From assembly GCF_000014225.1 (NCBI RefSeq), contig NC_008228.1:806001-870000 (forward strand): a DNA stretch of 64,000 bases, read 5' to 3'. The translations under genes and the position numbers were made by a program. The notes below the pieces were generated by a model that was given only the letters and a program-made list of their open reading frames with translations, was not told the origin of the DNA and ran no database searches. Of this stretch, positions 5,912 through 30,005 are shown one piece after another (the first letter of the stretch is position 1; every line of letters starts with the position of its first letter). The DNA is from Paraglaciecola sp. T6c (GTDB lineage Bacteria > Pseudomonadota > Gammaproteobacteria > Enterobacterales > Alteromonadaceae).

Positions 5912-5912
5912 C

Positions 5913-6518: not shown

Positions 6519-6535
6519 TGAATTGGAATTAAGCA

Positions 6536-14653: not shown

Positions 14654-15040
<387 letters not shown>

Positions 15041-15097: not shown

Positions 15098-15117
15098 TGT
15101 GCCAAAAACTGTGACAA
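15098..15117 (+). repeat. Subterminal direct repeat, left copy (possible integrase arm site)
   Basis: TGTGCCAAAAACTGTGACAA occurs here and again at 29870-29889 in the same orientation. Each copy lies about 60 bp inside the att repeat, and the left copy sits 44 bp before the integrase start. The position suits arm-type integrase binding sites. Confidence 0.7.
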
Positions 15118-15161: not shown

Positions 15162-17021
15162 ATGAAAACCGTCAAAAAGCTCAAATATTTATCCATTCGC
15201 GATAAAAACTATTACTTCAGATTTAACTTCCCTCGTAAGCTTCTAAGAGCAGATATTCGACTTTCGCTTAACACCCAGAACTTAGTGTATGCTCTTCAAC
15301 GTATCGAGCTATTGAAACCGTTCACAGATGAGTTAAAGATGTTGGCGACCGCATCAAAGGGCTTAAATCTATCTAGTCTTCAGCAACGAATCATCGGGGT
15401 TAAGGAAAACATGCGGAAAAAACTAACACTACATGATATCGATACCGTTATAGGTGAGTCCGAACGGAACGTAAGTAACCATATACACATGATGGATGTG
15501 TTGAGTGATGTTACTGTGAAAGAGCTGTCCAGTGAGACTCTTAAGCTACTTGCTGACGTAATGCTTACTGATGATTTCGAGTTAATGCAGCGAAAGGTCG
15601 TTTCGTATGCAAGCATGAGCGACTCATTTCAAAGAGGACTAAGCTTAGTAGCAAAATTCGCTGTACTACGAGCTACAGCTGGTAGCGAGCTCGAAGGTTC
15701 AGCGATCAATAGCGCAAATGGACAAGGACTTGAAGACATTTCTAGGATGATAAGATACAACGATATCCCCGAAGTAGGCTCCGTCGATACAACGGAAAAT
15801 TTGCGTGAGAAAGAAACCGAATCTTTGTTGCGAGAACTTGGCTACGAATATCAGACAGGTTCAATTGCTTTTAAAGTGCTAAATAAGAAGCTAGCTAATT
15901 CAAGATACCTCAAGAACAACATTGCCCTCGCTATTATTAATAACGACGTTATTAAGGAGCGCGAACTTGAAGAGCTTCTCAATAAAAAAACCAGACATCG
16001 ATACTCCGAGAAAACCAGAAAGGACGTAAAGCCTCACTCGCCGTTACTCTCAGAGGTTTATAAAGAATTCCTTCAGCACAAGATTAATAAAGAAAACCTT
16101 ACACTAAAAATGCAAAAGGATTACGAACGCTATTGGATCGTGTGGACTGCTATAGGTCCTGATAAAGCCATAAATGATTATTTACCCAAAGATATTGGGA
16201 TTTTCATTGATAGGTGCTTTGAATTGCCAAAAATGAACAAGTCCCCCTACAACAAAATGGGCTGGGAAGAACGGCTCAATTGCGACGTGAGTGAAGATGA
16301 TTTAGTTACCCCTAAGACCGTCCAGCATTATTATAAGTTACTCCAAGGGGTGTTTGCTTATGCTAAAAAAGACACTGTAGGATACATAGCTAGCTCTCCA
16401 TGTAACATTAAGCGAGATTTTAAGCAGAGGCGGCGGGGTATCTATTTTGATGAGGAGGTTAGGCGCTTTATTACGTTTGCAAACACTCAGAAGGTGGCAT
16501 GGAAGAAGTGGTCGATCCTTTTAGGTATATACACAGGTGCGCGGCGCTCGGAGATTTTTCAGTTAAGAACAGAAGACATCAAGAAGGACTCTGATAGTGG
16601 TAGATACTACCTGCTCATCACGGATGAACATGATACGCAAAAGCTAAAAACCGAAAATGCCAAACGTAGAATCCCTCTACACAATGACCTTATTAACTAT
16701 GGATTTTTAACATACGTTTCCGAATGCGACGAACGTGTTCTTGAGGGTATTTCTAGTCCCGAAACTATTACCCGCTGGTTCGCTAGAGTAGTAGAGCAAT
16801 TGAGTATAAAAACTATAAATGAGGTAGGTGATATGCGTTCTTTTCATAGTTTCCGCCATACCTTCATAACCAAAATTAGAACAGAGGGTGAATTTGATCT
16901 TTCGCTTCTACAACAAATTGTAGGGCATGGAATTTCCAAAGCTGGGATTACAGACAAATATACTCATGGTGGTGCTTCAATCGCTCGTTTAGGTAATGTA
17001 ATTGACACATTTAATTTGTGA
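15162..17021 (+). CDS. Tyrosine-type site-specific integrase of the island
   Basis: A 619-residue recombinase that would integrate and excise the island at rnpB. The N-terminus (YLSIRDKNYYFRFNFPRKL, residues 8-26) matches the DUF6538-type start seen in large island integrases. A long helical region follows, then a SAM-like core-binding domain (about residues 290-400). The catalytic residues are Arg461 (TGARRSE), His562 and Arg565 (HSFR), His589 (VGHG) and Tyr600 (DKYTH). It is longer than P4-type integrases (about 400 aa). It lies next to the left att site, as expected for the element's own integrase; all catalytic residues are intact, so it may be active. Confidence 0.92.
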   Translation: MKTVKKLKYLSIRDKNYYFRFNFPRKLLRADIRLSLNTQNLVYALQRIELLKPFTDELKMLATASKGLNLSSLQQRIIGVKENMRKKLTLHDIDTVIGESERNVSNHIHMMDVLSDVTVKELSSETLKLLADVMLTDDFELMQRKVVSYASMSDSFQRGLSLVAKFAVLRATAGSELEGSAINSANGQGLEDISRMIRYNDIPEVGSVDTTENLREKETESLLRELGYEYQTGSIAFKVLNKKLANSRYLKNNIALAIINNDVIKERELEELLNKKTRHRYSEKTRKDVKPHSPLLSEVYKEFLQHKINKENLTLKMQKDYERYWIVWTAIGPDKAINDYLPKDIGIFIDRCFELPKMNKSPYNKMGWEERLNCDVSEDDLVTPKTVQHYYKLLQGVFAYAKKDTVGYIASSPCNIKRDFKQRRRGIYFDEEVRRFITFANTQKVAWKKWSILLGIYTGARRSEIFQLRTEDIKKDSDSGRYYLLITDEHDTQKLKTENAKRRIPLHNDLINYGFLTYVSECDERVLEGISSPETITRWFARVVEQLSIKTINEVGDMRSFHSFRHTFITKIRTEGEFDLSLLQQIVGHGISKAGITDKYTHGGASIARLGNVIDTFNL

Positions 17022-17246
17022 TAAAACTGTAAATACACGAAATAAACAATTTCAATATATTCAAGTTGATTCCCCGCACAATTAAGATCCATATTCATCA
17101 CTAATTCCTCCGGTCAAATATCCATTTTTTTTATTAATTTGCTTTATTTTAGGTTTTTATGCGGGTATATTAACCAGAACCCCATAATTACTCCGGCCAA
17201 ATTTTGGGTTTGTTGTCGATATGGCCGCTAGAAATTGGAGTTTAAG

Positions 17247-18323
17247 ATGAATGTAACCGCTACAAATATCGCAGCAGCGATAAATTCCTTGGATAAAAAT
17301 GTCACATATGATTATCCAAACCCAAGAACCAAAACAAAGATCAATATTGTTAATGTAGTAATGCCCGAAGGACCGATTATTTTTCGGAGATGTGAGCCGA
17401 ATAAGGGAGAATCTTTTGATAACAAAGCTGATGAAAGTATTTCTGTTGCCGCAATATGGAGATTAGCCAGCTCCTTGAAGCCAAATCTTCCCGTGAATGT
17501 CGATAGAGTCTTTGGTGCGAGCTATAATTCTAGATCTGCACTTGAAGCCATGCTGGTTCACACCGAAAATTACTATATCTGCTATCCCGGTCGCCTCGAG
17601 AAAATCGGAGAAGATACTAGAGTGAGAAATGGACACAAACATATTATTTTTTGTCCAGATAAGCCACACCGGAGAGGTATCTTCGAAGTTATGGAAGTCA
17701 ATGACATGGTTGTCTCAGAAGTCGATCGAGAGGTATATTTTGACTCTCTCTTATTATCTGAAAATCCAGAAAGAGATAAGGTTCAGATTGAAATAGATAG
17801 ACGCCATGCTCAAATACAAATAATGCTAATTAAAGCAGCTGAATCAATTGGATTGAAATCTTGGGTTGCAAAGAATGATCATAGCATAAAATATGATTCG
17901 AAAAGACTGATTGAAATGGATTCTGTTATTAAGGATTTGAGTAATACTGCCGCATTGCAAGGTTACCCGAATGCAGCTAGAGCTGGTGAACTAATTGATT
18001 TAATGTGGCTCGACAGTGAAGGTAGGAAAATTCCAGCAATTATCGAGATAGAGCACAGTACAGGAGTAACATCAGGATTAACTCGAATGAAAGGTTTCAT
18101 GGAGGAGGCTCCCGATTTAGCACATATGACCTTTATTATATCTGCGCCAGATGAGATCAGAGAGCAAGTTTTGCGTAAAGCTAATGCTCCCCAATTCAAA
18201 GATATGAATATAATGTTCCTGCCATACTCAGCTGTCGAAGATTTGTTCCTGTTGAGTAGGAGAAATTTGAAAGGCATCGATAACATCAAATTTCTCCACA
18301 CCTTTCTCGAGGCTGTGACTTAA
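17247..18323 (+). CDS. Putative type II restriction endonuclease (PD-(D/E)XK-like)
   Basis: A 358-residue protein of no firmly recognised family. The start chosen is ATG 17247, because GGAG at 17237-17240 lies 6 bp before it; a longer TTG start at 17235 would overlap that site. The C-terminal part has Asp251 (in IDLMWLD), Glu267-Ile-Glu269-His270 (IIEIEHST) and a GLTRM segment at 277-281. This D...ExE arrangement with EHST and GLxRM resembles PD-(D/E)XK-like nuclease domains. It faces a cytosine methyltransferase gene with only 24 bp between the stop codons, so it is probably the cognate restriction enzyme. The functional call is inference from context and motif. Confidence 0.6.
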   Translation: MNVTATNIAAAINSLDKNVTYDYPNPRTKTKINIVNVVMPEGPIIFRRCEPNKGESFDNKADESISVAAIWRLASSLKPNLPVNVDRVFGASYNSRSALEAMLVHTENYYICYPGRLEKIGEDTRVRNGHKHIIFCPDKPHRRGIFEVMEVNDMVVSEVDREVYFDSLLLSENPERDKVQIEIDRRHAQIQIMLIKAAESIGLKSWVAKNDHSIKYDSKRLIEMDSVIKDLSNTAALQGYPNAARAGELIDLMWLDSEGRKIPAIIEIEHSTGVTSGLTRMKGFMEEAPDLAHMTFIISAPDEIREQVLRKANAPQFKDMNIMFLPYSAVEDLFLLSRRNLKGIDNIKFLHTFLEAVT

Positions 18324-18347: not shown

Positions 18348-19466
18348 CTAATTATCTAAGAAATCCCTTAGAATTTTTGCTATTCCTGCTGCCATTAAGA
18401 ATGGTACTCCATTGCCAATGGTCTTGAACATATTGCTAAGAGTCATTGTTGACGGGAGTTCAAATTCTTGTGGCAGAGATTGGATTGCTAATGCTTCAGC
18501 TGCGCTTATCCGCCTAGGTAAATATGGATGAATATGAACCTCGTTATTGCCGTACGCCGCTGTTGGAGAATAACGCCATCGATGGAGTCTTTTAAACGAT
18601 TTTTTAGATGCGTCTCCTTCGTCGATTGACTGAAATTTTGGCAGTGCAGCTCTTGGGATAAAATGATGATTGGCATTTGGGTGTTTAGTGACATTATTCT
18701 GTTTAAACCAGTGCTCAACGGTCAGCTCAATAGGAATGTTTTTTGGAGCTGAAACTTTTACTTTTTCTTTGAACGGACTTCTTACTGGCCAAGGATAATT
18801 TAAAGTTACATCCAGTTTGTACTTTATGTGTTTTTCCCATTTAAGCGCTTCAGTTAAGTTTTCACCAGATTTTAATTCAGTGTTTTTTAAAAGTGATTTA
18901 TGAAATCCAAATAGAATAATTCTATCTCTATCTTGTGGCGCTCCAAACTCCAAGCTGTTAGTGAGCCTGTCACTTAGAAGGTAACCAGCCTTTTCATAAT
19001 GCAATTTGATTTCTTCATAAAACTCTCTATGGCGAGCTGTACGCCAAAGCCCCTTAACGTTCTCGAATATAAAGAAATCGGGTTTGGCCTCGCAAACGAT
19101 ATCGCAATACGTTTTTGTTAGTTTACCATTCTCTCCCTCTTTCCCCTTATTCTTCCCGCCCACCGAAAAATCAGGGCAGGGCGGACCTCCGATAAATCCG
19201 GTGATATGTCCTTCTTTCTTTTGTTGCTTAACATTTCTAGCTAATTTATTTAACAAACTGCTGTTATTTGCGATATCTTCAATGCTAGTGTTGTCATAAC
19301 CATACTGAGGAGTTTCAATTTTCATTTGTTGACGTGAATATTCGTACGCATCCAAAAATGGTTGATGATATTCGTTTACGTAAACCACGTCGAAACCGTT
19401 TTTTTCGAAGCCAAGATCCAAAAATCCACTTCCAGAAAAAAACGAAAATAGCTTTTTAGGCATCAT
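18348..19466 (-). CDS. DNA (cytosine-5)-methyltransferase
   Basis: A 372-residue m5C methyltransferase transferring a methyl group from S-adenosylmethionine to cytosine in DNA. Motif I is FSGSGFLDLGF (residues 9-20), motif IV GGPPCPDFS with catalytic Cys97, motif VI ENVKG (135-139), motif VIII QDRDR (178-182) and motif X NGVPFLMAAGIAKIL near the C-terminus. The segment between motifs VIII and IX (about residues 200-300) holds the target-recognition region; the target cannot be read from sequence. AGGA lies 5 bp before the first of two adjacent Met codons, supporting the start. It is convergent with the putative restriction enzyme. Confidence 0.92.
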   Translation of the reverse strand: MMPKKLFSFFSGSGFLDLGFEKNGFDVVYVNEYHQPFLDAYEYSRQQMKIETPQYGYDNTSIEDIANNSSLLNKLARNVKQQKKEGHITGFIGGPPCPDFSVGGKNKGKEGENGKLTKTYCDIVCEAKPDFFIFENVKGLWRTARHREFYEEIKLHYEKAGYLLSDRLTNSLEFGAPQDRDRIILFGFHKSLLKNTELKSGENLTEALKWEKHIKYKLDVTLNYPWPVRSPFKEKVKVSAPKNIPIELTVEHWFKQNNVTKHPNANHHFIPRAALPKFQSIDEGDASKKSFKRLHRWRYSPTAAYGNNEVHIHPYLPRRISAAEALAIQSLPQEFELPSTMTLSNMFKTIGNGVPFLMAAGIAKILRDFLDN

Positions 19467-20173: not shown

Positions 20174-20650
20174 TTAGGTCTTGCCTGACACTTTTTGATT
20201 TGCCGTTTTGGCCGCTATGGTTTTCTTACCAATAGTGACTCTAGCTAAGATAAAATTATCCAATTCGCCTTTTTCCACAGCGTGAATGATGGTTTCAAAT
20301 GTTTTGGGTAATTCGGCTTTATCACCTATATCAATGGCAGGTTTGCCTTCTTGTATATCAATGGGTTTGTTGTTTACCTTTACCTCTAAAAAGTAATGTC
20401 CATCGCTGTCGTAATACCACGGTTTAACCGATACGGCTCGACGTTGCTTTGTACGCTCTCCAGTGACAGGATCCTTGACCATTTTTTCGCGATAGGCTTC
20501 GAAGGGTTTCCCTTCAAGCATGCAAGTTGCCATTTCTTGCTGCTGCTCTAGTTTTTCAATCAGTTTCATACGTTTGCCGATAATGGGTGGCTTTGGCTCG
20601 ATGATCGGGCGAGTAGTTACCTTGAGTGAACTCAATAATGATGTAGTCAT
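20174..20650 (-). CDS. DUF6641-like protein, last gene of recombinase/AAA operon
   Basis: A 158-residue basic protein. The N-terminal SLKVTTRP, a helical KLIEKLEQQQEMA part and a central basic segment ending in VKPWYYDSDGHYFLEVKV resemble the DUF6641 family of island-borne proteins (assignment from memory, moderate certainty). No catalytic motif, signal peptide or membrane segment is visible. It starts 17 bp after the stop of the double-AAA gene, with AAAGG about 9 bp before the ATG, so it is probably co-transcribed. Function is unknown; a DNA-binding or adaptor role would suit its charge. Confidence 0.65.
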   Translation of the reverse strand: MTTSLLSSLKVTTRPIIEPKPPIIGKRMKLIEKLEQQQEMATCMLEGKPFEAYREKMVKDPVTGERTKQRRAVSVKPWYYDSDGHYFLEVKVNNKPIDIQEGKPAIDIGDKAELPKTFETIIHAVEKGELDNFILARVTIGKKTIAAKTANQKVSGKT

Positions 20651-20667: not shown

Positions 20668-22674
20668 TTAGTGTGATTTCGAGATGAAACCGATAGGGTG
20701 GTTGGGTTGTTTGTGACGGCTCTCTTCGATAAGCAGAGACAATGCTTGCTGGCGAAAATCACCATCGGGCTGAAACCGCATGCGACGCGCTACAATAGCG
20801 AAGTCACCTGGAGTTAATTGGGTCAGTATGGATAGCTTTTGTTGTTCGTATTGGGTTAATTGTCTAAGTGATAACACTCGCTTAAACAATGTCATAGATT
20901 GCTGGGCAGTTAGGTACTGTGCTTCAAGTTTAAAGTCAAAACGCCTTAGTACTGCTTTATCCAATAACCGTGCGTAATTGGTCGCGGCAAATACTGGCTG
21001 CTCAAAACATTCAATTTGTGTTAATAACTCATTGATAAGCTGTATGTTATGTTGCTCAGTGACGCGCTCGCGAGATACTAATAAGCTATCCACTTCATCT
21101 AGTAATAACGCGTTGCCGTGCTGCTGTGCGTCATAAAATATATTGGCAATGTTGGACTCACTTTCACCAATATACTTGCTTAAAACGTCAGAGCAGCGCA
21201 CTGATACAAGGTTAAAGTCATGCTGCTTCGCCAAGTGGTGCGCAAAGGCTGTTTTACCCGTGCCAGGCTCGCCAGACAGTAATATACGAATTGGCGCATG
21301 TTGTGCGAGCGCAGCATTAATTTGCTTAATGGTTTCCTTGCCTTGCTTGATGTTCAGCAAGCTAGCATCAAACGCCATCTCTGGTTTATAGCTAAGTGGT
21401 GTGGCTAATAAATCAGAAGCTGATAAGGTACTTTGAATCACCTCAGAAACTACTTCTTGTGCTGACTGGCCTGTTAGATTGATGGTTTTAGCTACGTGTG
21501 CCGCATTCCCTATATGCGCAGGAGTGATATTGGCTGTAGTAAGTAGCTTATCGATATAGGGTTGCTTGATACGTAACCCACTAAATGCCTGTTTCGCCAG
21601 TGGCTCTATGTATTTTCCCTCTATGGCGTTCACTTCTTGTACCAGCTTAAAACGCCGAATGAAGCTATTTTCGATGTATTGAATATGGTTTGTTATCCAA
21701 ATACAGGGATTAGGATTCGTTTCCAGTAGACGATGAAGGGTATCTTTTGCAAAGTATTCATCGCTATCCATAAAGATGGATTCACATTCGTCAATCAAAA
21801 ACATCGATTGGGTGTGACTGCCTAATAGTGCCTGCATTGAAGATAAGTACTGCATACGAAGGCGACTTTGACTCCTAACGTCGTAGCGCTCTTCTAATCC
21901 TTTACCCGCGCTGTCCATTGTCTTCGTTTCATATAGGGTTATCGATAATGACTTGGCTAAGGCTCTGGCTAGTTCGGTCTTTCCTGTACCCGCATCACCG
22001 TAGATGAGGATATTGACTCCGCTTAACCGTTGCCTTACTGCGCTCTGTAAATACTGATGTAGCGTTTCGGTATCTAAGTGCGAGAAGTCTTTCAAGGTGA
22101 AAGCCGCTGATGGACTTGCCGATAACAAATGACGTAAATACACCTCTGCACTTGATAGCTTGCTACGCGTTAATAACCGCACCTGACTTTCAGGTAATAT
22201 CAGGTCACAAGAGTTCGTTAGCGTGGTCGAGCGAATAAGGCCGTTGCTGGCTAAAGCGTCTAGTTGTGAGTAACAGGTATCTTCATCAACTTTAAAATGC
22301 GCCGTTAAAGCTCGCTTTACGCTATCTATTAAGTCGCAAAACTGTAATTCATCAACCAATTCCTTTAACACACTCGATGAACTCAGCGCGATGATGTACT
22401 CAATGAGCCCAGCGCTTTCTATCGGGACTCGGTAGATCGCACAAAGCAATCTAGCATTGTGGTAAATGATATCGTTTCGTACATTCTTAGCCATACTTTG
22501 CAAAGCGGCCTGCATCTCTACAAACGATGACGGCTTTTGATTTGGACCAATCAGAATTGTTAGCTTGTCCAAAACATCCGTATCCAGAGCTTCATATTCA
22601 GGCTCAGTTAGACCATAAGTGAGAAGGGCGCTTGCATAGCGAGCAGCTAGAGCAGTGTGTTGAGGGCGACTCAT
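20668..22674 (-). CDS. Protein with tandem AAA+ ATPase domains
   Basis: A 668-residue protein with an N-terminal helical domain (1-200) and two AAA+ modules. Module 1 has Walker A GDAGTGKT (226-233) and a Walker B-like MFLIDECES. Module 2 has Walker A GEPGTGKT (468-475), Walker B ALLLDEVDS, the sensor-1 Asn in AATNYARL and the arginine-finger region VLRRFDFKLEA, like Cdc48/FtsH-type ATPases. Its ATG overlaps the stop of the upstream recombinase gene (ATGA). The domains suggest an ATP-driven remodelling machine acting on protein or nucleoprotein. The partner recombinase and the small DUF6641-like protein are the likely clients or cofactors; no experimental function is known to me. Confidence 0.85.
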   Translation of the reverse strand: MSRPQHTALAARYASALLTYGLTEPEYEALDTDVLDKLTILIGPNQKPSSFVEMQAALQSMAKNVRNDIIYHNARLLCAIYRVPIESAGLIEYIIALSSSSVLKELVDELQFCDLIDSVKRALTAHFKVDEDTCYSQLDALASNGLIRSTTLTNSCDLILPESQVRLLTRSKLSSAEVYLRHLLSASPSAAFTLKDFSHLDTETLHQYLQSAVRQRLSGVNILIYGDAGTGKTELARALAKSLSITLYETKTMDSAGKGLEERYDVRSQSRLRMQYLSSMQALLGSHTQSMFLIDECESIFMDSDEYFAKDTLHRLLETNPNPCIWITNHIQYIENSFIRRFKLVQEVNAIEGKYIEPLAKQAFSGLRIKQPYIDKLLTTANITPAHIGNAAHVAKTINLTGQSAQEVVSEVIQSTLSASDLLATPLSYKPEMAFDASLLNIKQGKETIKQINAALAQHAPIRILLSGEPGTGKTAFAHHLAKQHDFNLVSVRCSDVLSKYIGESESNIANIFYDAQQHGNALLLDEVDSLLVSRERVTEQHNIQLINELLTQIECFEQPVFAATNYARLLDKAVLRRFDFKLEAQYLTAQQSMTLFKRVLSLRQLTQYEQQKLSILTQLTPGDFAIVARRMRFQPDGDFRQQALSLLIEESRHKQPNHPIGFISKSH

Positions 22675-23588
22675 GAATTGGCCTCTCTGGTATCACCATA
22701 GCTCAGTGAAGATGCAGCTTTTTGCATCACCTTGTTATCGCGTTTGTCGTACACCACGGTGGTACTGATATCTTGGTGTCCTGCCATTAGGCGAACGGTA
22801 TTTAAATCGATGTTCTGCTCTAATAGGCGGGTGATATAGGTGCGGCGCAAGTCATGGGGGGATACGTTACCAAGTCCTACCTGCTTTGCCGTATTACGTA
22901 CCAATAAGTAAACGCTCTCGGTGGTTATGCCTCGATTAATATTGATGCGATTGGTTTTGTTCACGGGATTGAATAAGTAGCCTGCATTATCCCCTCGGAG
23001 CAACAACCATGAATAAACATGCTCGACACACCATTTAGGTAAGAAGGCCGTCCGGCGTTTATTGCCTTTTCCTTTTTGCACGACAAGTTGGCGTTCGTGT
23101 AAGATTAAATCCTTCAAGTGCAGAGCAGTTAGTTCACTTCTGCGCAGGCCTGCACCTAGTAATAGGGCGAATATAGCCTGATTACGGACATCGATGATGC
23201 TGGTGTGTTTGTTTAAGTAGCTAAACAATGTATTTACCTGCGTTGCATTGAGTGGATTACCCTGATGCTGTGAGGTCTTTTCAAGTTTAATAGCACTGAG
23301 CTGAATTAGCTGATTTTCAGGCACTAGGCCCATGATGACACCGACCTTAACCACGTTACGAATGGCCGACATGGCACGATTAACTGATTTGGAAGATGAA
23401 CCGTGTTGAATAAGCTCTACTTTGATTTGGCATGCAGTTTGATAATCAACTTGGTGGAGCATCTCGTCGCGTTTATCCGGTGGCCATTCCATTATCTCAG
23501 CAACTTTGTATAGCTGTGACTTGATTGAGCGCCGACTATTAGGCGCAAGTCTCCCTAAATACAGGGCGAGTGGACTCGCTGTAGTCAT
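22671..23588 (-). CDS. XerC/D-type tyrosine recombinase, first gene of the three-gene operon
   Basis: A 305-residue tyrosine recombinase of the short XerC/D-like type. The N-terminal core-binding domain spans about residues 1-105. Catalytic residues are Arg149 (GAGLRRSE), Lys174 in the QKGKGNKRR hairpin, His245 and Arg248 (SPHDLRRT), His271 (MAGHQ) and Tyr280 (TTVVYDKR). GGAG lies about 6 bp before the ATG. It overlaps the double-AAA gene by 4 bp. The island already has its own integrase at the left end, so this enzyme may serve a nested element or a different function of the operon. Confidence 0.9.
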   Translation of the reverse strand: MTTASPLALYLGRLAPNSRRSIKSQLYKVAEIMEWPPDKRDEMLHQVDYQTACQIKVELIQHGSSSKSVNRAMSAIRNVVKVGVIMGLVPENQLIQLSAIKLEKTSQHQGNPLNATQVNTLFSYLNKHTSIIDVRNQAIFALLLGAGLRRSELTALHLKDLILHERQLVVQKGKGNKRRTAFLPKWCVEHVYSWLLLRGDNAGYLFNPVNKTNRININRGITTESVYLLVRNTAKQVGLGNVSPHDLRRTYITRLLEQNIDLNTVRLMAGHQDISTTVVYDKRDNKVMQKAASSLSYGDTREANS

Positions 23589-23635
23589 CTGAACTCCAGT
23601 TTTGATATGTAATATGATTGGTTTTACGTTAAAAG

Positions 23636-23677
23636 AGGCGTGCTAGCAGTAACTGCTATGCATATGCTAGCAAGCCT
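23636..23677. other. Long inverted repeat upstream of the recombinase operon
   Basis: Arms of 13 bp (AGGCGTGCTAGCA and TGCTAGCAAGCCT, one mismatch) flank a 16-bp spacer. Each arm contains the self-palindromic TGCTAGCA. It lies between the recombinase start (23588) and the end of the 237-residue gene (23739). Read on the minus strand it is followed by CTTTT, so it may be a terminator for that gene; it also has the look of a recombinase core site or operator. Confidence 0.6.
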
Positions 23678-23738
23678 TTTGAGGTAGGAATAGAGATGTT
23701 TTTGACCTAGTTAATACGTCAATTAAAATCTATAAAGG

Positions 23739-24452
23739 CTATTCTTTAAAAACAATTTTTGTCACTCCGTCTAATACAGGTTCACATTGACTCTTACTTA
23801 GAACCTCACTATCTGAAATCGGGACCATACTGCCAGTAACGTAGACGGTATCTACATCATTTGCCCAATGGGTCAATTTTTCCAAACTATTCACACCACG
23901 TGATTTCAATCCCTTTTCAAGTAGCCTCAATGCCCGCGTGTCTTTTAACTTAATTTTTTGCTCAGGTAGTGACGTTGTATTAGCTTGCTTTTCGGTGTTG
24001 TCTTCAAACTGAATAAAAAATCTATAGAGAGTATCGAGTTGAGACAAGCTGGTCACTCCAAGTAACTTTAAAGCTTGATGAAGCTGTTCATATGTTTTCG
24101 CTTTGCTACTGTCTTCTATTAAACTTTCAAAATATCGCGCAGCTTCGAGGGATAGATCAGTTCTATCTCTTTTTTTATCTAATTCATCTTGGGATATTTT
24201 TTTGACCCATGCTTTCCATGCGTCACCACAGTCATTGCTCAATGTATTGAGCTCAGTAACTAATTGTTCAACCTTTTTCTGTTCGTTATTTGCTTTAGCT
24301 TGGTTAAGTTCCTTTAGAAGACGATCGATTTCATTTTTCAGTTCACTCTTGCGTTTTGCTACCTTGAGTCTGCTATTACCTACAAACTCGATGAGTGACT
24401 GACCGCACTCAAGCCATTCCTTTTCAGATCTTCCTTTTCTTAATCTTGCCAT
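23739..24452 (-). CDS. Coiled-coil protein of unknown function
   Basis: A 237-residue, strongly charged protein. Residues 30-95 (KSELKNEIDRLLKELNQAK) have a heptad-like coiled-coil pattern. A second helical part (about 100-150) and a smaller C-terminal domain ending in KIVFKE follow. It has no signal peptide, membrane segment or catalytic motif. An AAGG lies about 9 bp upstream of the ATG. It diverges from the initiator-helicase gene across a 272-bp region with direct repeats, so it could be a regulator or partner of that protein. I do not recognise the family. Confidence 0.65.
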   Translation of the reverse strand: MARLRKGRSEKEWLECGQSLIEFVGNSRLKVAKRKSELKNEIDRLLKELNQAKANNEQKKVEQLVTELNTLSNDCGDAWKAWVKKISQDELDKKRDRTDLSLEAARYFESLIEDSSKAKTYEQLHQALKLLGVTSLSQLDTLYRFFIQFEDNTEKQANTTSLPEQKIKLKDTRALRLLEKGLKSRGVNSLEKLTHWANDVDTVYVTGSMVPISDSEVLSKSQCEPVLDGVTKIVFKE

Positions 24453-24508
24453 TATTTTTTACCTTTATGCTCATGGTTTATGGTACTGGGATAGATGAGT
24501 TCATTGCT

Positions 24509-24523
24509 CTGTTCAGAATTAAT
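24509..24523 (+). repeat. Direct repeat copy 1 (iteron-like) before the initiator-helicase gene
   Basis: CTGTTCAGAATTAAT recurs as CTGTCCAGAATTAAT at 24555-24569 (14 of 15 identical, 46 bp apart), in the divergent promoter region. A partial match AGAATTAA occurs at 24690-24697. Confidence 0.5.
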
Positions 24524-24554
24524 TTTACATTTTGCTCTTAGTCTATTATATTAT

Positions 24555-24569
24555 CTGTCCAGAATTAAT
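24555..24569 (+). repeat. Direct repeat copy 2 (iteron-like) before the initiator-helicase gene
   Basis: Second copy, CTGTCCAGAATTAAT, of the repeat at 24509-24523. The pair could bind the replication-initiator-like domain of the downstream protein or a regulator of the divergent genes. Confidence 0.5.
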
Positions 24570-24724
24570 GGAAGTTGTTTTTAGCCAAGAGAATTATTGG
24601 GGAGAACTAAAATTACGAGGCATTTGTATTAGAGCTACAGAGAGAGCTTTTTTTTGATCTGTATAAGCTCAGTGGAATGTCACTTATATAGAATTAACAA
24701 TCGATATTATTTAGAGGTGTTTGT

Positions 24725-27514
24725 ATGACAAGGAATGATAAAAATTTGATGTTTTCAGATATTGAAAATAACCTGTGGAGTAACAAATTTGCACTCAAAA
24801 ATAACAGTCATGTAGATACTGACTTGAATGCTGTTTATCAATCGTTTATTAATAACGGAACACTAAGCTATAAAGATGAACCAAAATCGTTAGTGAAGTT
24901 GCTACAGGATCCAAAGCACGCAAAGTACCAATCTAAGTTGTTGAGTAGATATTTTGAAGAGCCAGAAAAATATCTAAAACTTGATTGTGATTATCTATCT
25001 ATTCAAGTGGATTGCTCTCAAGCTAAAACTGTTGAACTATTTACAAATAACGATACTGGGCTACTAAAGCCGAGATCCAATGCACTACGTGAGATTTTAA
25101 CAATCCGCCATGAGCCATGGGTTCATAAAGCGAATAACGGTCTTATGAGTAAGGAAAATAGTGAGGGTGAGCGATATCCAAAAGCTCCGATTTTTACATC
25201 TGTTTATCGAATAAAACTATTCAATGATAGACGCAAGTTTTTCTATATCTATATCGCTGATGGGACTAAGGGTCTAGAAGGTAAAAGAGTCCAGATTGAT
25301 TTTATTCCAAGTCGATTCACAGACCTTGAACTCAGTATCCTATTCGGACACATCAAGTCAGTACTGAAAAAAAGAGCCTACTCACAGTTTATTGCAAAAG
25401 CGAGATACAAGAGGGTTGATATAGCTTTTAACATGCCAGGTGTATTTCAACCGTTCGTGTTTCCTGCATACTTTGCTATCAATAGTATTTCGACGGGCTC
25501 CTGCTGGCCTTTGGAAAAGCTTGTTGAAACATGCTACATAGGTAATAGGAGAAGCAATCACTACATCGTGTACGATAAAATATTAAAGGAGATGAAGACA
25601 GACATTACCTTTTTTTTGATTGAACATGCTGAAGTACAACAGGCTATGAAAAAGCTAGCAATGGTCACTCGCATCGAAAGACGTTTCTATACAAACCGTG
25701 CAGGTCACAATAGCAAGTTGTTTCAGAAAACCATCCCGCTATCGGACCTACCTACTCAGACAATGCCACTGGATGAAATTGCAATAATAGATCCAATTGT
25801 AATGCGAAAAATTGATAGAAAGCTTCTTTTAAAAACTATTCAAGAGAAAAGTCGTTGGCAGGATGGCGGTAATAAAGAAGCAGCTACTCGCCAAATAAAT
25901 GAAGAGCTTGAAGGGACCAAGGTGTTTCGGCTAGATGAAACAGTGTTCAATACAATGAAAACAAAGCTGCTAACCGATTTATTGGAGACTATCCAAAACC
26001 CTACTATTATAAAGACAGATGAACTTATTAAATTAATAAAATTCAATCACTTAAAGAAAAGTATCGAATTACCACTACCGTTAACAAAAGTTAAAAAAAT
26101 TTCAAAAGCTTATAAATCAGAGCACCACAACATAGTAGTGAAGTCTGGTGCTGGTTGCGGTAAGACGAGAGAAATAGTAAAGCGAGTAGTTTGGCTCATA
26201 AGTGAGAAAGACGTTGATGCTAATAAAATTACTATACTGGCTTACACAAATGATGCGGTAAAAGAGCTTAAACAGCGAATAAGAAAAAAACTCGAAAAGC
26301 TAAAGCCGCTAAACGGAAAAGACCGTTTTGAACTTCCAAATATCAAGACATTTAGTGCTTGGTGTGGTCAGCAATTGAAACGACACGATAAAAAGCAATA
26401 TGGCTCAAGTACTTATATGCCGTCAGAGAAAGAAAAAGGCGCTTTAACTAAGACCAGAGAATACTATTTGCGTAACATAGTTGCTTCTAATTCGACGATT
26501 AAAGGCAAAGCAGAAGATTATGATAGATTGTTCTCATTTAGTGCTAATGATTGTAAGCCAAATCTTGGTAACCTAATTGATTCTATTAGCTCAAGACGTT
26601 CTAAAAAGTTAAAGGTTAACGCTAAAGATGCACGAACCGTTTACGTCGCCTATAAGAAATTGAAAGAAAAACATTCTCTATGGGATTTCGATGATGTTTT
26701 GACTTTTATGAACAAGCGCATGAAAGTTCCAAAATTCTCCAACAAAGTATCTGATGGTTGCGAGCATCTAATTTTAGATGAAATGCAAGACTCCAATTTG
26801 GTGCAGTGGCAGATCCTCGAGAAGCTATCAGCAGCAGGCATAAAGTTATTTTGTGTTGGAGATACAGCTCAATCGATATTTGGATTTAGAGGTGCTCGTC
26901 CGGCTAGGTTTGAAAATTATGCAGAGAACACAGAAGTTAAGCGCTTTACCTCAAGACATAGCTATAGGTCTACCAGTCGAATTCTTCGACTCACTAACTT
27001 TGTCCGACGTTACACTCAATCGTTACCAAAAAAACTAACAACCGGAAAATCAGAAGGAGATGCACCGGAACTTATCGAGCATGATGATTTGCAAGGACTT
27101 GTTAATGACTTAACAAGTAAGTTGACTCAGTTGTTAGAAAGATCGCACAAGACAGAGGCAATACTCATTTTAGCTAGGACAACTAAGGTAGTTGATACGA
27201 TAAGCGATGCAATTACTTTGGCGCTTAAAACCGAAAAGTATATGCCACTGTTGAAAAGAATTTCTGTAATGACGATGCATAAAGCGAAAGGACTAGAAGC
27301 CGATGTTTGTTTTGTGGTCGATCCTCGCTATTCTCGCTCATCATACGACACCAAAGATGAGTATCTAAGGCTTATATATGTTGCTCTGACTCGAGCGCGC
27401 ACAAAACTTATAATTTGTCGCAAAAACACCTCAGTCAATTTTTATACAGATGGTCAGGAAGGTGAACCGGATATCATTGATATTCTGAAAGAGAATACGT
27501 TTTTGTTTGCGTAA
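24725..27514 (+). CDS. Fusion of a replication-initiator-like domain and a UvrD/Rep-type helicase
   Basis: A 929-residue protein. The C-terminal half is a superfamily 1A helicase: Walker A SGAGCGKT (474-481), DEMQD (685-689), GDTAQSIFGFRGA, MTMHKAKGLEAD and YVALTRAR. The N-terminal half resembles phage/plasmid replication-initiation factors of the Rep_trans kind: RVDIAF (230-235), YIGNRRS (271-277) with YDK (283-285), and RIERRF (316-321). Typical Rep proteins recruit a separate UvrD-like helicase; here both appear in one chain. A GAGGTG ribosome site precedes the ATG. The helicase call is firm. The N-terminal call is by pattern, and the strand-nicking tyrosine is not identified with certainty. 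A role in island replication or in defence is inferred. Confidence 0.8.
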   Translation: MTRNDKNLMFSDIENNLWSNKFALKNNSHVDTDLNAVYQSFINNGTLSYKDEPKSLVKLLQDPKHAKYQSKLLSRYFEEPEKYLKLDCDYLSIQVDCSQAKTVELFTNNDTGLLKPRSNALREILTIRHEPWVHKANNGLMSKENSEGERYPKAPIFTSVYRIKLFNDRRKFFYIYIADGTKGLEGKRVQIDFIPSRFTDLELSILFGHIKSVLKKRAYSQFIAKARYKRVDIAFNMPGVFQPFVFPAYFAINSISTGSCWPLEKLVETCYIGNRRSNHYIVYDKILKEMKTDITFFLIEHAEVQQAMKKLAMVTRIERRFYTNRAGHNSKLFQKTIPLSDLPTQTMPLDEIAIIDPIVMRKIDRKLLLKTIQEKSRWQDGGNKEAATRQINEELEGTKVFRLDETVFNTMKTKLLTDLLETIQNPTIIKTDELIKLIKFNHLKKSIELPLPLTKVKKISKAYKSEHHNIVVKSGAGCGKTREIVKRVVWLISEKDVDANKITILAYTNDAVKELKQRIRKKLEKLKPLNGKDRFELPNIKTFSAWCGQQLKRHDKKQYGSSTYMPSEKEKGALTKTREYYLRNIVASNSTIKGKAEDYDRLFSFSANDCKPNLGNLIDSISSRRSKKLKVNAKDARTVYVAYKKLKEKHSLWDFDDVLTFMNKRMKVPKFSNKVSDGCEHLILDEMQDSNLVQWQILEKLSAAGIKLFCVGDTAQSIFGFRGARPARFENYAENTEVKRFTSRHSYRSTSRILRLTNFVRRYTQSLPKKLTTGKSEGDAPELIEHDDLQGLVNDLTSKLTQLLERSHKTEAILILARTTKVVDTISDAITLALKTEKYMPLLKRISVMTMHKAKGLEADVCFVVDPRYSRSSYDTKDEYLRLIYVALTRARTKLIICRKNTSVNFYTDGQEGEPDIIDILKENTFLFA

Positions 27515-27596
27515 ATAACAAGCTAGCTAATGAATAGTCAATTTATGCTGGTAGCAAGCTTTTGGCACTTTAGTTGGCCAAAATCAGAGTCAGTTT

Positions 27597-27606
27597 GTGT
27601 TAACAC
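27597..27606. promoter_or_regulatory. Palindrome upstream of the Septu-like pair
   Basis: GTGTTAACAC is a perfect 10-bp palindrome in the AT-rich region before the ATPase gene, followed by a second TTAAC. It may be an operator; no adjacent regulator gene was found. Confidence 0.25.
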
Positions 27607-27662
27607 GTATTAACAAAACTAATAATTAGTATACGCTCTACAAGATATATGGAGGGATCTCT

Positions 27663-27722
27663 ATGTTACTTGAAAGGATGGCTATCACTGGAGAACAGAA
27701 TGAATTAATAGTTCTTGAGTAA
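27663..27722 (+). CDS. Possible 19-residue leader or micro-protein
   Basis: ATG to TAA encodes 19 residues (MLLERMAITGEQ...VLE). A strong ribosome site, GGAGGG at 27651-27656, lies 6 bp before the ATG. It sits 60 bp before the Septu-like ATPase gene, which itself has no strong ribosome site. It could be a leader peptide or a chance frame. Confidence 0.2.
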   Translation: MLLERMAITGEQNELIVLE

Positions 27723-27782
27723 TGACTGATTTATTGAGAACCTTGTTTATTACTAATTGATTAGCATTAGGTTTAGGGAAGA

Positions 27783-29168
27783 ATGTTTCGAATCCTCGCA
27801 TACAAAAGTGACTCGTTCTCGGAAATTAATTTCACAAAGAGTGAATCATCAAAGAACTTCAAAACGTTATTGATTGGAGAGAATGGAACAGGGAAAACTC
27901 GCTTATTAAATGAGCTGATATCAGCCGTTAGATCTCATCACCCATCCGAGAGTTCTAGCAGGACCAAAAAATTTAATTACGAGCTAGCTTATTTGAATGA
28001 GAGCAATAAAAAAATTTTACTAAACTCAAATAAAGCACAAGAAAAAACAGCCATAATAAGTAATAAAGTTATTGCTATCTCCGCTTCTAATAATGATAAG
28101 TTACCTTTCTCTGATAGTGACAAATTTTTTGATAAGAACTATCAATATTGTGGCATAAGAGAAACAAGCAATGCATCTTGGACTAGCTCCTTAATGAGAA
28201 AGACAATCGAAAACCTACTTGATTGTGTTTCTAATAACAAGATAAAGCCTCTTTCAAAAATTTTTAGTTTTCTTTCGTTTGAAAATATTATACGTATTAG
28301 GTTCAGTCTTAAAAAAACAACAAAGCTTGATTTGTTTAACTGCAAAGCAGAAGATTTGCTAGAATTTATTGAACACTATTCACTGAATTCCAGAAGAATG
28401 CAGGTGGACTTGATTCGTGAATTTGATTTAAAAGCAGCCAGAAATATTCTAAGTTATTTTAAAGATATCATTCTACGGGTATCTGATAAAGAAGCATATT
28501 TTGAGGTAAACCTATTGGATGATAACTACGGGTTTCTCAAAGCATATCAAAATATTGATCTCTTAAGGCGAGTCGGTTTGATTAGTGATGTATCTTTAAG
28601 ATTAGCAAAAGAGGGTGATAAACAAGACTTCACTTTTATGGATGCAAGTTCAGGAGAAAGTCAACTGTTACACAGTCTTTCATCTTTTGTAAGGTATGTT
28701 GTCGATGACTCTTTAGTTGTAATTGACGAGCCTGAAATAAGCCTACATCCCAACTGGCAACTAAAATATATTTCATTAATAGATTTGCTTTTAACCGATT
28801 TGAAAGGGTGTCATGTAGTCATAGCTACACATTCTCATTTTTTAGTTACTGATTTAAAGCCTGAAGATAGTTCATTGATAGTTTTAGAAAAAGATGAAAA
28901 GGGCATTAGAGCTACTCCTATCGAAAGTTCAACTTTAGGGTGGAGTCCTGAAAGTGTTTTATACAGAGTTTTCAATGTGAGGATAATTAACAGTGTCTAT
29001 TTAGATAGTGATTTACAAAAAGCACATCAATTAATGTCAAGTGATGATATAGACTTTGTAGAATTAAAAAAGCTAATGAGTAAATTTGAGTCACTGGTTT
29101 TAGATGAAAAAGATCCATTGAAAAAGTTCATTGGTGCTATGGAGGATTTTATTGATGAGCGTGGATGA
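27783..29168 (+). CDS. Septu-like ABC/SMC-type ATPase (PtuA-like)
   Basis: A 461-residue ATPase of the AAA_15/AAA_21 (OLD/RecF-like) type. Walker A is GENGTGKT (32-39), the signature is SSGES (289-293), Walker B is VVIDEPE (Asp315-Glu316) followed by ISLHPNWQ, and the H-loop is ATHSH (His350). There is no TOPRIM domain at the C-terminus, unlike OLD nucleases. The next gene is an HNH nuclease overlapping by 14 bp. An ATPase followed by an HNH protein is the layout of the Septu anti-phage system (PtuA-PtuB), in which the ATPase controls the nuclease. The length is near the lower end for PtuA. Defence function is inferred. Confidence 0.8.
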   Translation: MFRILAYKSDSFSEINFTKSESSKNFKTLLIGENGTGKTRLLNELISAVRSHHPSESSSRTKKFNYELAYLNESNKKILLNSNKAQEKTAIISNKVIAISASNNDKLPFSDSDKFFDKNYQYCGIRETSNASWTSSLMRKTIENLLDCVSNNKIKPLSKIFSFLSFENIIRIRFSLKKTTKLDLFNCKAEDLLEFIEHYSLNSRRMQVDLIREFDLKAARNILSYFKDIILRVSDKEAYFEVNLLDDNYGFLKAYQNIDLLRRVGLISDVSLRLAKEGDKQDFTFMDASSGESQLLHSLSSFVRYVVDDSLVVIDEPEISLHPNWQLKYISLIDLLLTDLKGCHVVIATHSHFLVTDLKPEDSSLIVLEKDEKGIRATPIESSTLGWSPESVLYRVFNVRIINSVYLDSDLQKAHQLMSSDDIDFVELKKLMSKFESLVLDEKDPLKKFIGAMEDFIDERG

Positions 29169-29778
29169 CTGGTATCTTAATATAACAGTCTTACCTAATC
29201 TTTCTAAAGAATCTGTTCATTATATAGGAAGTTTGATACCTCACGATCCTAGCCAATGGAATTTACAGACCAATGCAATGAAGAAATATAAGAAAGAGTT
29301 GTTAGAAAAGCTTGTAGATATTCAAGAAAATAGATGTGTTTATTGCGGGTTAGGTTTTGATCGAAAATCAGTTGACCGAGAGCATTTTGTACACAAAGAA
29401 GCAACCCGTGGATTTAAAGAGTTCATGTTCACACCTGAGAACTTGTTTGCTTCCTGTGAATTTTGTAATAGAAGATTAAAGAAACGAACCACAGTGATAG
29501 ATAGTTATGATAAAAACTACAGCGACTGTACATTCAAAATCATTCACCCATATTTAGATACACCATCCGAATTTATTTCATTTTTCCCAAGTAATGATGT
29601 TCCTTACGTCGTCAAGCCCACAGAGAAAGATTGTGGTAAAGGTGAAAGAACAATCGAGATGTTTGAATTAGATACCATTTCAATGTGGAAATTAAGGCAA
29701 GCTCATTTAAGTTGTATGGCGATGGATGAGAGTGAGTACGCAGAGATTTTAAAATATAAAGGATCATTTTCAGAATAG
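29155..29778 (+). CDS. HNH endonuclease (PtuB-like)
   Basis: A 207-residue HNH-family nuclease. The start chosen is ATG 29155, because AGGA at 29143-29146 lies 8 bp upstream; the frame is open further back to a TTG at 29131, but that would have no ribosome site. Two zinc-knuckle pairs, CVYC (61-64) and CEFC (101-104), flank the HNH core DREHFVHK (His77) and ENLFASCEFCNRRLKKR. The start overlaps the ATPase gene by 14 bp, implying translational coupling. In Septu systems the HNH protein degrades nucleic acid when released or activated by the ATPase. No reverse transcriptase or retron RNA gene is nearby, so a retron-type Septu is unlikely. Confidence 0.85.
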   Translation: MSVDDWYLNITVLPNLSKESVHYIGSLIPHDPSQWNLQTNAMKKYKKELLEKLVDIQENRCVYCGLGFDRKSVDREHFVHKEATRGFKEFMFTPENLFASCEFCNRRLKKRTTVIDSYDKNYSDCTFKIIHPYLDTPSEFISFFPSNDVPYVVKPTEKDCGKGERTIEMFELDTISMWKLRQAHLSCMAMDESEYAEILKYKGSFSE

Positions 29779-29869
29779 GAGTCATGGGGGGTAAGTTAAA
29801 TATTTAGAAATATGAATATTTCAATCAGTTGTGTCACCTTAAATAGTATATTTAAAGTCTTGAAATGGT

Positions 29870-29889
29870 TGTGCCAAAAACTGTGACAA
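29870..29889 (+). repeat. Subterminal direct repeat, right copy
   Basis: Identical to 15098-15117, same orientation, ending 60 bp before the right att repeat. Probable integrase arm-type site. Confidence 0.7.
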
Positions 29890-29949
29890 TATATATTGGT
29901 TGGTTTTATAACATACTGTTTTTACTAGTACATTAATTTTGCTGAGGTT

Positions 29950-29971
29950 GGCTTATCGACCAACTCCACCT
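29950..29971 (+). repeat. Right attachment repeat (residual rnpB 3' end)
   Basis: Identical over 22 bp to the last bases of rnpB at 15018-15039. The rest of rnpB is absent here, so this is the leftover end of the original gene after insertion. Confidence 0.9.
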
Positions 29972-29986
29972 AATTTCAATATTACT

Positions 29987-30005
29987 CCGCCTGATCATCA
30001 GGCGG
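29987..30005 (+). terminator. Displaced native rnpB terminator hairpin
   Basis: CCGCCTGAT-C-ATCAGGCGG is a perfect 9-bp inverted repeat 15 bp after the residual rnpB end, followed by TGTCTACTTTC. It is at the distance expected for the original rnpB terminator and is now separated from rnpB by the island. Confidence 0.6.

What the first reader, a model, noticed from the sequence alone, without database searches (positions are those of the whole stretch)
24725..27514. One chain combining a replication-initiator-like domain with a UvrD/Rep helicase
The C-terminal half has all SF1A helicase motifs. The N-terminal 400 residues carry three blocks typical of phage/plasmid Rep_trans-type initiators (RVDIAF, YIGNRRS...YDK, RIERRF). 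Rolling-circle initiators normally recruit a separate host UvrD-like helicase; a fusion would give the island its own initiator-helicase. Alternatively the N-terminal part may be a DNA sensor for a defence function. I know of no described system with this exact layout.
Basis: partly seen in the sequence, partly recalled or inferred. Interest (0 to 1): 0.7.

Follow-up and report, generated by a model that had tools for sequence, protein, structure and literature searches.

The report
Nicking initiator fused to UvrD-type helicase
A single protein in a marine bacterium's mobile DNA element appears to join the enzyme that starts rolling-circle copying (by nicking DNA) to the motor that unwinds it, two jobs usually done by separate proteins, one of them borrowed from the host.

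Summary
ORF 24725-27514 (929 aa) is one chain. Residues 459-898 are an SF1A helicase. Residues 1-455 look like a divergent Rep_trans initiator: the only PDB fold match at E<=0.001 is RepDE (E 1.1e-7), and profile comparison with ten Rep_trans proteins puts RxD, TxYxG, YxK and RxE in register (prob 95%; controls 2% or less). The predicted nicking tyrosine Y283 is kept in 32 of 32 aligned rows. Against: no Pfam cut-off is reached, and RepDE's religation arginine is absent.

It is not unique: 15 distinct fused proteins, plus two loci with separate overlapping initiator and helicase genes, in the window's order and near kin. Related elements pair the initiator with a DUF3987 gene. The fused helicase lacks a 2B domain (12 of 12 measurable copies).

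The window copy sits in a 14.9-kb element at the 3' end of rnpB (22-bp repeats; four same-genus genomes keep the site empty) that carries a type II R-M pair and Septu (PtuAB). PtuAB was detected in none of 61 other loci, so a defence role is unlikely.

Best reading: an element-encoded rolling-circle initiator-helicase. Biochemistry is untested; no origin was found. New variant of a known kind.

The parts
24725..27514 (+). Rep_trans-type initiator fused to UvrD-type SF1A helicase, 929 aa (the finding)
24725..26089 (+). Initiator domain, residues 1-455
   Evidence: AlphaFold pLDDT 86.3, pTM 0.87; only PDB fold match at E<=0.001 is RepDE 4cwc; hhalign to Rep_trans set prob 95%
24989..24991 (+). 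Codon of D89, candidate metal ligand (RepDE D46); correspondence inferred from motif order and invariance
   Evidence: 32 of 32 rows
25412..25420 (+). R230-V-D232, RxD block (RepDE R140, D142)
   Evidence: R in 27 of 32, D in 28 of 32, H in 4
25571..25579 (+). Y283-D-K285: predicted nicking tyrosine and lysine (RepDE Y191, K193)
   Evidence: Y 32 of 32, K 29 of 32; Y283 lies in strand 279-284
25670..25678 (+). R316-I-E318, RxE block (RepDE R212, E214)
   Evidence: R 31 of 32, E 32 of 32
26099..27418 (+). UvrD-type helicase core, residues 459-898, without a 2B domain
14654..15039 (+). rnpB (RNase P RNA); its 3' end is the insertion site
   Evidence: RF00010, 327.3 bits
15018..15039 (+). attL, 22-nt direct repeat
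29950..29971 (+). attR, 22-nt direct repeat
   Evidence: empty site in 4 of 6 same-genus loci read
15162..17021 (+). Tyrosine recombinase, 619 aa, beside attL; likely integrase of the element (role inferred from position)
   Evidence: PF00589 E 7.1e-11
22671..23588 (-). Core XerC-like tyrosine recombinase, 305 aa
   Evidence: PF00589 E 5e-26; XerC model E 2.9e-39, below its cut-off
20668..22674 (-). Core protein with two AAA+ modules, IetA-like
   Evidence: PF00004 E 2.7e-41, 2 stretches; PADLOC IetA E 8.2e-40
20174..20650 (-). Core DUF6641 protein
   Evidence: PF20346 E 1.1e-7; bait for 48 loci
23739..24452 (-). ORF of unknown function between integrase and initiator
   Evidence: no clear family
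17235..18323 (+). Cargo: type II restriction enzyme-like protein
   Evidence: PADLOC REase_II E 3.4e-86
18348..19466 (-). Cargo: cytosine-C5 methyltransferase
   Evidence: PF00145 E 1.7e-49; PADLOC MTase_II E 1.8e-168
27783..29168 (+). Cargo: PtuA, Septu ATPase
   Evidence: PADLOC E 2e-164; NCBIfam retron-Ec78 PtuA model below cut-off
29131..29778 (+). Cargo: PtuB, Septu HNH nuclease
   Evidence: PADLOC E 5.6e-107; NCBIfam retron-Ec78 PtuB model below cut-off

Best explanation
The protein is the replication initiator-helicase of an integrative element. After the element excises from rnpB as a circle (likely by the 619-aa tyrosine recombinase), the N-terminal Rep_trans domain nicks one strand at the element's origin through Y283 with a metal ion held by acidic residues. 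It stays attached to the 5' end, and the fused 2B-less UvrD-type motor unwinds the circle so that the host polymerase can copy it by rolling-circle replication. Shown here by computation: the open reading frame, the two-domain architecture, Rep_trans-like fold and motifs, SF1A motifs, absence of 2B, recurrence across elements, the att repeats and empty sites. Inferred: excision, nicking, covalent attachment, unwinding, an origin, replication of the circle, and the roles of the two recombinases.
For: Fold: confident N-domain model; sole PDB match with E<=0.001 is RepDE 4cwc; the best viral match is an inovirus protein. Profiles: A5 against ten Rep_trans proteins prob 95.2%, E 2.7e-8; A1 94.6%, E 6.6e-8; controls 0.1%, 0.3% and 1.9%. 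Homologues give sub-threshold hits to Rep_trans E 6.8e-4 (L039) and Phage_CRI E 6.9e-4 (L035) and RepD-like_N E 3.9e-4 (L088). Active-site conservation matches residues reported for RepDE (PMC4797284, passages). Fifteen distinct fused proteins and two split adjacent gene pairs, L025 and L092. The gene lies inside a bounded element. PF02486-type filamentous-phage initiators depend on host UvrD (PMC4863604, abstract and section 11), and ICEBs1 NicK works with PcrA, which UvrD can replace (PMC3542172, passages), so the fusion joins known partners.
Against: Pfam and NCBIfam, the libraries with curated cut-offs, are not reached by the initiator half of any member scanned; PHROGs gave at best E 0.12 to a replication initiation family, for L026. 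The 14-sequence profile finds no initiator in PDB sequences. The RepDE match has modest TM-scores (0.35/0.54) and an rmsd of 13.8 over 383 columns. The arginine R189 of RepDE, said to be critical for religation, is not conserved (I281 here). Four fused copies (L032, L034, L063, L066) have ExH for RxD, and K285 is P in L091, W in L092 and R in L028. No origin or conserved hairpin was found near the window gene. The relative placement of the two domains is not confidently predicted (pTM 0.55).
Confidence: 0.75

Rival explanations
1. It is mainly a relaxase-helicase for mobilisation by a helper conjugative element, a Rep_trans analogue of TraI, rather than a vegetative replication protein.
For: MobT relaxases are Rep_trans relatives and serve both transfer and replication of excised ICEs (PMC5704250, passages; PMC3542172, passages). 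The helicase is in cis, as in TraI (recalled).
Against: Family scans of ten genes of the window element name no coupling protein or secretion gene; oriT was not searched for. Exchange with DUF3987-paired initiators fits a replication module better. The two roles are not exclusive.
Confidence: 0.2
2. It is part of a defence system with PtuAB; the N-domain recognises invading DNA and the helicase processes it, as the helicase GajB does in Gabija (GajB role recalled).
For: PtuA and PtuB lie directly downstream on the same strand; GajB models match the helicase half, best E 3.1e-39.
Against: One-sequence PtuA/PtuB models scored over 30 bits in none of 61 other loci (several of these loci are cut by contig ends). 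There is a 268-bp gap before ptuA. GajB hits cover only the generic helicase core. The N-domain has a conserved nicking site.
Confidence: 0.06
3. The N-domain binds the origin and loads the helicase but no longer nicks; replication is not rolling-circle.
For: Loss of the RepDE R189 equivalent; ExH instead of RxD in four fused copies; K285 lost in L091 and L092.
Against: Y283, D89 and E318 are kept in 32 of 32 rows at 15-34% identity to the window copy. In an archaeal Rep_trans relative the tyrosine and two glutamates were reported essential and the middle aspartate minor (PMC13107129, passages).
Confidence: 0.1

Closest known systems
Rep_trans initiators (PF02486): RepDE/RepD of pT181-type plasmids, RepSTK1 of pSTK1, CTXphi/VGJphi/Pf initiators
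   Same: Fold match to RepDE, order of motifs RxD, TxYxG, YxK, RxE, predicted nucleophile on a beta strand.
   Different: Those recruit a separate host helicase, PcrA or UvrD (PMC4797284; PMC4863604); here it is fused. Below Pfam cut-off; religation arginine missing.
MobT relaxase NicK of ICEBs1 with host PcrA and helper HelP
   Same: Rep_trans-type nickase plus PcrA/UvrD motor for an integrated, excising element (PMC3542172, passages; PMC5704250, passages).
   Different: Separate proteins, Gram-positive host, conjugative element.
Rep_2 (PF01719)-helicase putative relaxases of streptococcal IMEs
   Same: An RCR-initiator domain associated with a helicase domain in an integrated element (PMC5704250, passages).
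   Different: PF01719 (HUH-type, per PMC4797284) initiator rather than Rep_trans; Gram-positive hosts; type of helicase not stated in the passages seen.
TraI relaxases, Helitron RepHel, CRESS-virus Rep (all recalled)
   Same: Nickase joined to a helicase in one chain.
   Different: HUH nickases with SF1B or SF3 helicases, not Rep_trans with SF1A.
PcrA/UvrD/Rep helicases and GajB
   Same: SF1A motifs; Foldseek best matches of the full-length model are UvrD E 2.9e-21 and PcrA E 2.8e-20.
   Different: PcrA-type 2B insertion is absent: motif IV to V spans 96-118 residues in 12 fused copies.

Membership tests
Rep_trans (PF02486) initiators | Score above the curated Pfam cut-off | tested here: not met
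   No hit at E<=1 for the window protein; best homologue 19.7 bits against cut-off 29.6 (L039)
Rep_trans (PF02486) initiators | Rep_trans fold | tested here: met
   RepDE 4cwc E 1.1e-7, prob 1.00, the only match at E<=0.001; but TM 0.35/0.54 and rmsd 13.8 are poor as a superposition
Rep_trans (PF02486) initiators | Nucleophilic tyrosine with lysine two residues on (YxK), on a beta strand | tested here: met
   Y 32 of 32, K 29 of 32; strand 279-284
Rep_trans (PF02486) initiators | Three acidic metal ligands (RepDE D46, D142, E214) | tested here: inconclusive
Rep_trans (PF02486) initiators | Religation arginine two residues before the tyrosine (RepDE R189) | tested here: not met
   I281 in the window; R in 2 of 32
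Rep_trans (PF02486) initiators | Origin nicking and covalent attachment | not testable with these tools
   Needs biochemistry
UvrD/PcrA/Rep SF1A helicases | Helicase motifs I-VI | tested here: met
   (motif names recalled)
UvrD/PcrA/Rep SF1A helicases | 2B domain between motifs IV and V | tested here: not met
   63 residues unaligned in the query against 236 in PcrA; IV-V spacing 96-118 in the 12 of 15 fused copies where both motifs were found
MobT relaxase systems | Coupling protein or mating genes in the element, and an oriT | tested here: inconclusive
   No coupling or mating gene named among the window element's genes scanned; oriT not searched; mobilisable elements may lack them
Septu | PtuA plus PtuB | tested here: met
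   PADLOC E 2e-164 and 5.6e-107; neighbouring cargo, not part of the fused protein's recurring context

The most novel reading that the evidence does not exclude
A self-sufficient rolling-circle machine: a Rep_trans nickase permanently coupled to an intrinsically active, 2B-less SF1A motor, so the element need not recruit or activate host UvrD/PcrA. It is one of several exchangeable replication modules (fused UvrD, split UvrD, DUF3987-paired) in a family of defence-carrying integrative elements of Alteromonas-, Shewanella- and Rheinheimera-type bacteria that my searches found no name for.
Probability: 0.5. Interest if true: 0.7.

Novelty: new variant of a known kind. Interest (0 to 1): 0.55.

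Why it matters
How a Rep_trans initiator recruits and activates a UvrD-type helicase has been studied with two separate proteins. A natural fusion, natural split versions and relatives with another partner gene offer direct comparisons, and the missing 2B domain bears on how the motor is switched on. The elements that carry it also carry restriction and other defence genes in marine and related bacteria.

Tried and rejected
Direct family scans of the window protein (Pfam, PADLOC, PHROGs at E<=1; NCBIfam at E<=0.01) gave nothing for the N-terminal half. The A1 profile against PDB sequences gave only unrelated weak hits, best E 0.058. tblastn of residues 1-442 found nothing in the plasmid (72,556 records, E<=0.01) or phage (50,697 records, E<=1) collections. 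Viral-contig scans with the full protein and with DUF6641 found no relatives, nor did a genome-contig scan with residues 1-442. A class sample with the single sequence hit only the own genome (1 of 369); with A5 it hit 2 of 369, and a phylum sample 7 of 398, own genome counted each time; among those matches only the own genome and G411 have open frames of fused length.

Origin search: no inverted repeat (9+ nt, up to 60 nt apart) in window 24440-24760, 19440-20200 or 27500-27800; one imperfect pair at 23633-23680. In 12 fused loci, 4 had perfect stems of 8+ bp in the 450 bp upstream of the gene and 8 had none; three of the four lie 111-113 nt upstream but their sequences differ, so this was not used. 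Promoter- and terminator-like counts in 24400-30000 do not exceed shuffles.

The defence-sensor reading was rejected as main explanation because PtuAB is not shared. Whether there was a single fusion event is left open: the fused label needs 2 changes on the tree, and one origin is not ruled out. In one search my script labelled L025 as DUF3987-paired because a weak 41-bit DUF3987 match lies next to it; I moved L025 to 'split UvrD' by hand. The 47 'distinct' initiators still hold at least two repeats (L033 of L028, L036 of L074). For the tree, 14 rows under 95 bits, L078 (fragment) and L033 were dropped: 31 of 47 used. A5 rows were chosen by me among the better-scoring homologues; the weakest ones (such as L048, L050, L056) were not checked for active-site residues. 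L087 has a UvrD-type gene in the element but no initiator match.
Full report
WHAT IS THERE. Window 24725-27514 (+) is one open frame of 929 codons from ATG; it matches once in its genome, a 5.19-Mb single contig. Residues 459-898 are a UvrD-type SF1A helicase (PF00580 E 4.6e-46, PF13361 E 4.8e-19; motifs placed; best PDB sequence match PcrA E 2.5e-23). Foldseek on the full-length model gives UvrD E 2.9e-21 and PcrA E 2.8e-20. That model has mean pLDDT 82.1 but pTM 0.55, so how the two halves sit relative to each other is not known.

THE N-TERMINAL HALF. No library names it: Pfam, PADLOC and PHROGs at E<=1, NCBIfam at E<=0.01. Homologues were found in 14 of 295 genomes of the family and 15 of 394 of the order, own genome included in both. 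With 32 rows (alignment A5) AlphaFold gave pLDDT 86.3 and pTM 0.87. Foldseek against PDB returned 428 matches at E<=10 and exactly one at E<=0.001: RepDE, the Rep_trans initiator of staphylococcal plasmids (4cwc, E 1.1e-7, prob 1.00; TM only 0.35/0.54, rmsd 13.8). In the viral library 14 matches pass 0.001; the best is an inovirus protein, most of the rest are unnamed and four named ones are from large eukaryotic viruses. TATA-binding-protein matches appear lower in both lists; the Rep_trans fold is reported to be shared with TBP (PMC13107129, passages).

PROFILE TEST. I built an alignment (A7) of ten Rep_trans proteins: RepSTK1 of pSTK1, six from other plasmids and one from a Stenotrophomonas phage (L098-L105; 8 of 50 listed hits), and two PF02486 hits from the window's own genus (L094, L095). 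hhalign of A5 against A7: prob 95.2%, E 2.7e-8. The first 14-row alignment A1 gave 94.6%, E 6.6e-8. RxD, TxYxG, YxK and RxE fall in register. Controls: A4 (AAA protein) against A7 0.1%, A5 against A4 0.3%, A5 against A3 (DUF6641) 1.9%. Some divergent homologues touch known families below cut-off: L039 Rep_trans E 6.8e-4, L035 Phage_CRI E 6.9e-4 (2 of 10 proteins scanned) and L088 RepD-like_N E 3.9e-4.

ACTIVE SITE. The RepDE structure paper (PMC4797284, passages read) names Y191 as nucleophile, metal ligands D46, D142 and E214, and conserved R140, T176, Y178, G180, R189, K193 and R212. On A5 (32 rows; L036/L074 and L035/L069 are the same proteins, so 30 distinct) the matching positions are Y283 32 of 32, D89 32, E318 32, D232 28 (H in 4), R230 27, R316 31, T269 31, K285 29, G273 26, Y271 25. 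The D46-D89 match is my inference from order and invariance; the profile alignment does not reach it. Against the reading: the position of R189, which the paper calls critical for religation, is I281 here and R in only 2 of 32. L032, L034, L063 and L066, all fused, carry ExH for RxD. In an archaeal Rep_trans relative the authors report the tyrosine and two glutamates essential and the middle aspartate minor (PMC13107129, passages), which would leave room for such changes.

THE HELICASE LACKS 2B. The PcrA alignment breaks off at query residue 327 and resumes at 391, but at PcrA residues 322 and 559. In the 12 of 15 fused proteins where my patterns found both motifs IV and V they are 96-118 residues apart. 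That 2B is inhibitory and regulated by partners is recalled knowledge, not tested here.

THE ELEMENT. The window copy lies in a bounded insertion: a perfect 22-nt direct repeat at 15018-15039 and 29950-29971, 14,932 bp apart. The left copy is the 3' end of rnpB (RF00010, 14654-15039). Of 22 same-genus genomes searched with both flanks I read six loci. In four (L106-L109) rnpB runs on into the right flank without the element: blastn of the joined flanks gives one alignment across the junction (L108, L109) or two at the expected spacing (L106, L107). L110 has about 2.0 kb of other DNA there, and for L111 the right flank is on another contig, so it says nothing. GC is 38.6% inside against 45.5% and 43.9% in the flanks. 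A 619-aa tyrosine recombinase starts 123 bp inside attL.

A FAMILY OF ELEMENTS. With DUF6641 as bait, 48 loci came from a collection of 84,980 species genomes, from Alteromonas, Paraglaciecola, Shewanella, Rheinheimera, Alishewanella, Arsukibacterium, Idiomarina and others, and none from viral contigs. Across these 48, the window and 13 loci found through the initiator, the genes for XerC-like integrase, double AAA and DUF6641, often with DUF2787 and RadC, recur (several loci are cut by contig ends and several are one element fetched twice). Of the 15 fused proteins, surroundings were fetched for 13: all 13 have double-AAA and DUF6641 genes and 11 the integrase; eight of the 13 were found without the DUF6641 bait. 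Initiator genes counted on these loci and L029-L045: 60 ORFs at 45 bits or more, 47 distinct by my key. Fifteen are fused to the helicase; one of these, L024/L080, runs off its contig. Two are split: Rep and UvrD are adjacent and overlapping in L025 (9365-10516 and 8034-9368) and L092 (788-2002 and 1989-3383), confirmed by Pfam on the helicase genes. Nine are next to a DUF3987 gene, after moving L025 to 'split' and counting one short locus, L044. The remaining 21 are alone or unresolved, 7 of them on short loci. L046 and L025 also have a DUF3987-like gene (139 and 41 bits), so the partners are not strictly exclusive. On a tree of 31 rows the fused and split forms fall in one group of 20 rows or fewer together with three DUF3987-paired ones; the fused label needs 2 changes against a shuffled mean of 10.6 (0 of 500 shuffles as low), and one origin is not ruled out.

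CARGO. The window element carries a type II restriction enzyme and C5 methyltransferase and PtuA and PtuB (Septu). One-sequence models of PtuA and PtuB scored over 30 bits in none of the 61 other loci. Of ten cargo-like genes from other loci scanned against PADLOC, five had hits at 1e-5 (two with methyltransferases, a type I restriction subunit, HmaC, an SMC-like ATPase) and five had none. I did not map the borders of those elements, so some of these genes may lie outside.

MECHANISM. Filamentous-phage initiators with the PF02486 domain (CTXphi, VGJphi, Pf) need host UvrD, whereas PF05144-type ones use Rep (PMC4863604, abstract and section 11); one homologue here, L035, leans to PF05144. Staphylococcal Rep recruits PcrA (PMC4797284). 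ICEBs1 NicK acts with PcrA, and E. coli UvrD can replace it (PMC3542172, passages). The simplest reading is that these elements fused, or keep side by side, the nickase and its motor. Replication and mobilisation cannot be separated from sequence; MobT proteins do both (PMC5704250, passages).

IS IT KNOWN. Library searches: Rep_trans+UvrD+fusion, 0 papers; RepD/PcrA/Rep_trans, 35 holding two, 20 listed; rolling circle/replication initiat/helicase fusion/UvrD, 27 holding three, 20 listed; Rep_trans/superfamily 1 helicase/rolling circle, 36 holding two, 15 listed; relaxase+UvrD+fused+rolling-circle, 4; DUF3987+DUF2787, 0; family names, 550, of which 25 listed, none of those holding a DUF name; rnpB+genomic island+attachment site, 5; Alteromonas+integrative element+rolling-circle, 0. 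None of the listings described this fusion. Beyond listings I saw passages of PMC4797284, PMC5714925, PMC5704250, PMC3542172, PMC13107129 and PMC5512222 (whose UvrD case is a different giant protein), and the abstract and one section of PMC4863604. A 2017 review of rolling-circle initiators has no occurrence of 'UvrD', 'PcrA' or 'fused' (PMC5714925). The closest print is a PF01719-helicase group in streptococcal IMEs. Most subscription papers and bioRxiv preprints are not in this library.

VERDICT. It is a new variant of a known kind: a divergent Rep_trans-type initiator with its SF1A helicase in cis, in a family of elements. Function is inferred.

Noticed in passing
window 14654-15039 and 29950-29971: An integrative element uses the 3' end of rnpB (RNase P RNA) as insertion site, restoring it with a 22-bp repeat.
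   Followed up: yes
window 15098-15117 and 29870-29889: A second exact 20-nt direct repeat (TGTGCCAAAAACTGTGACAA) just inside both att sites, possibly recombinase arm sites.
   Followed up: no
window 15162-17021 and 22671-23588: Two different tyrosine recombinases in one element: the 619-aa one beside attL and a XerC-like one in the conserved core; among the loci scanned, relatives of the large one were seen only in L091 and L092.
   Followed up: partly
window 20668-22674; L016-L028, L046-L093: A conserved protein with two IetA-like AAA modules whose role in the element is unknown.
   Followed up: no
L048 5246-6882, L062 5182-6881, L075 1995-3748: Some related elements carry a pair of genes (about 230 and 310-350 aa) beside the integrase where others carry the initiator; possibly another replication module. 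The L048 and L062 pairs have no clear Pfam family; the L075 pair was not scanned.
   Followed up: partly
L087 228-2147: A 639-aa gene with a UvrD-type match (258 bits) in a related element without a detected initiator domain.
   Followed up: no
L017, L023, L085, about 111-113 nt upstream of the initiator gene: Perfect hairpins of 8-10 bp with unrelated sequences at nearly the same distance from the start codon; could be origin, operator or chance.
   Followed up: no
window 96-9438: A run of genes whose translations look like phage tail and baseplate proteins, to the left of the element (reading by eye).
   Followed up: no
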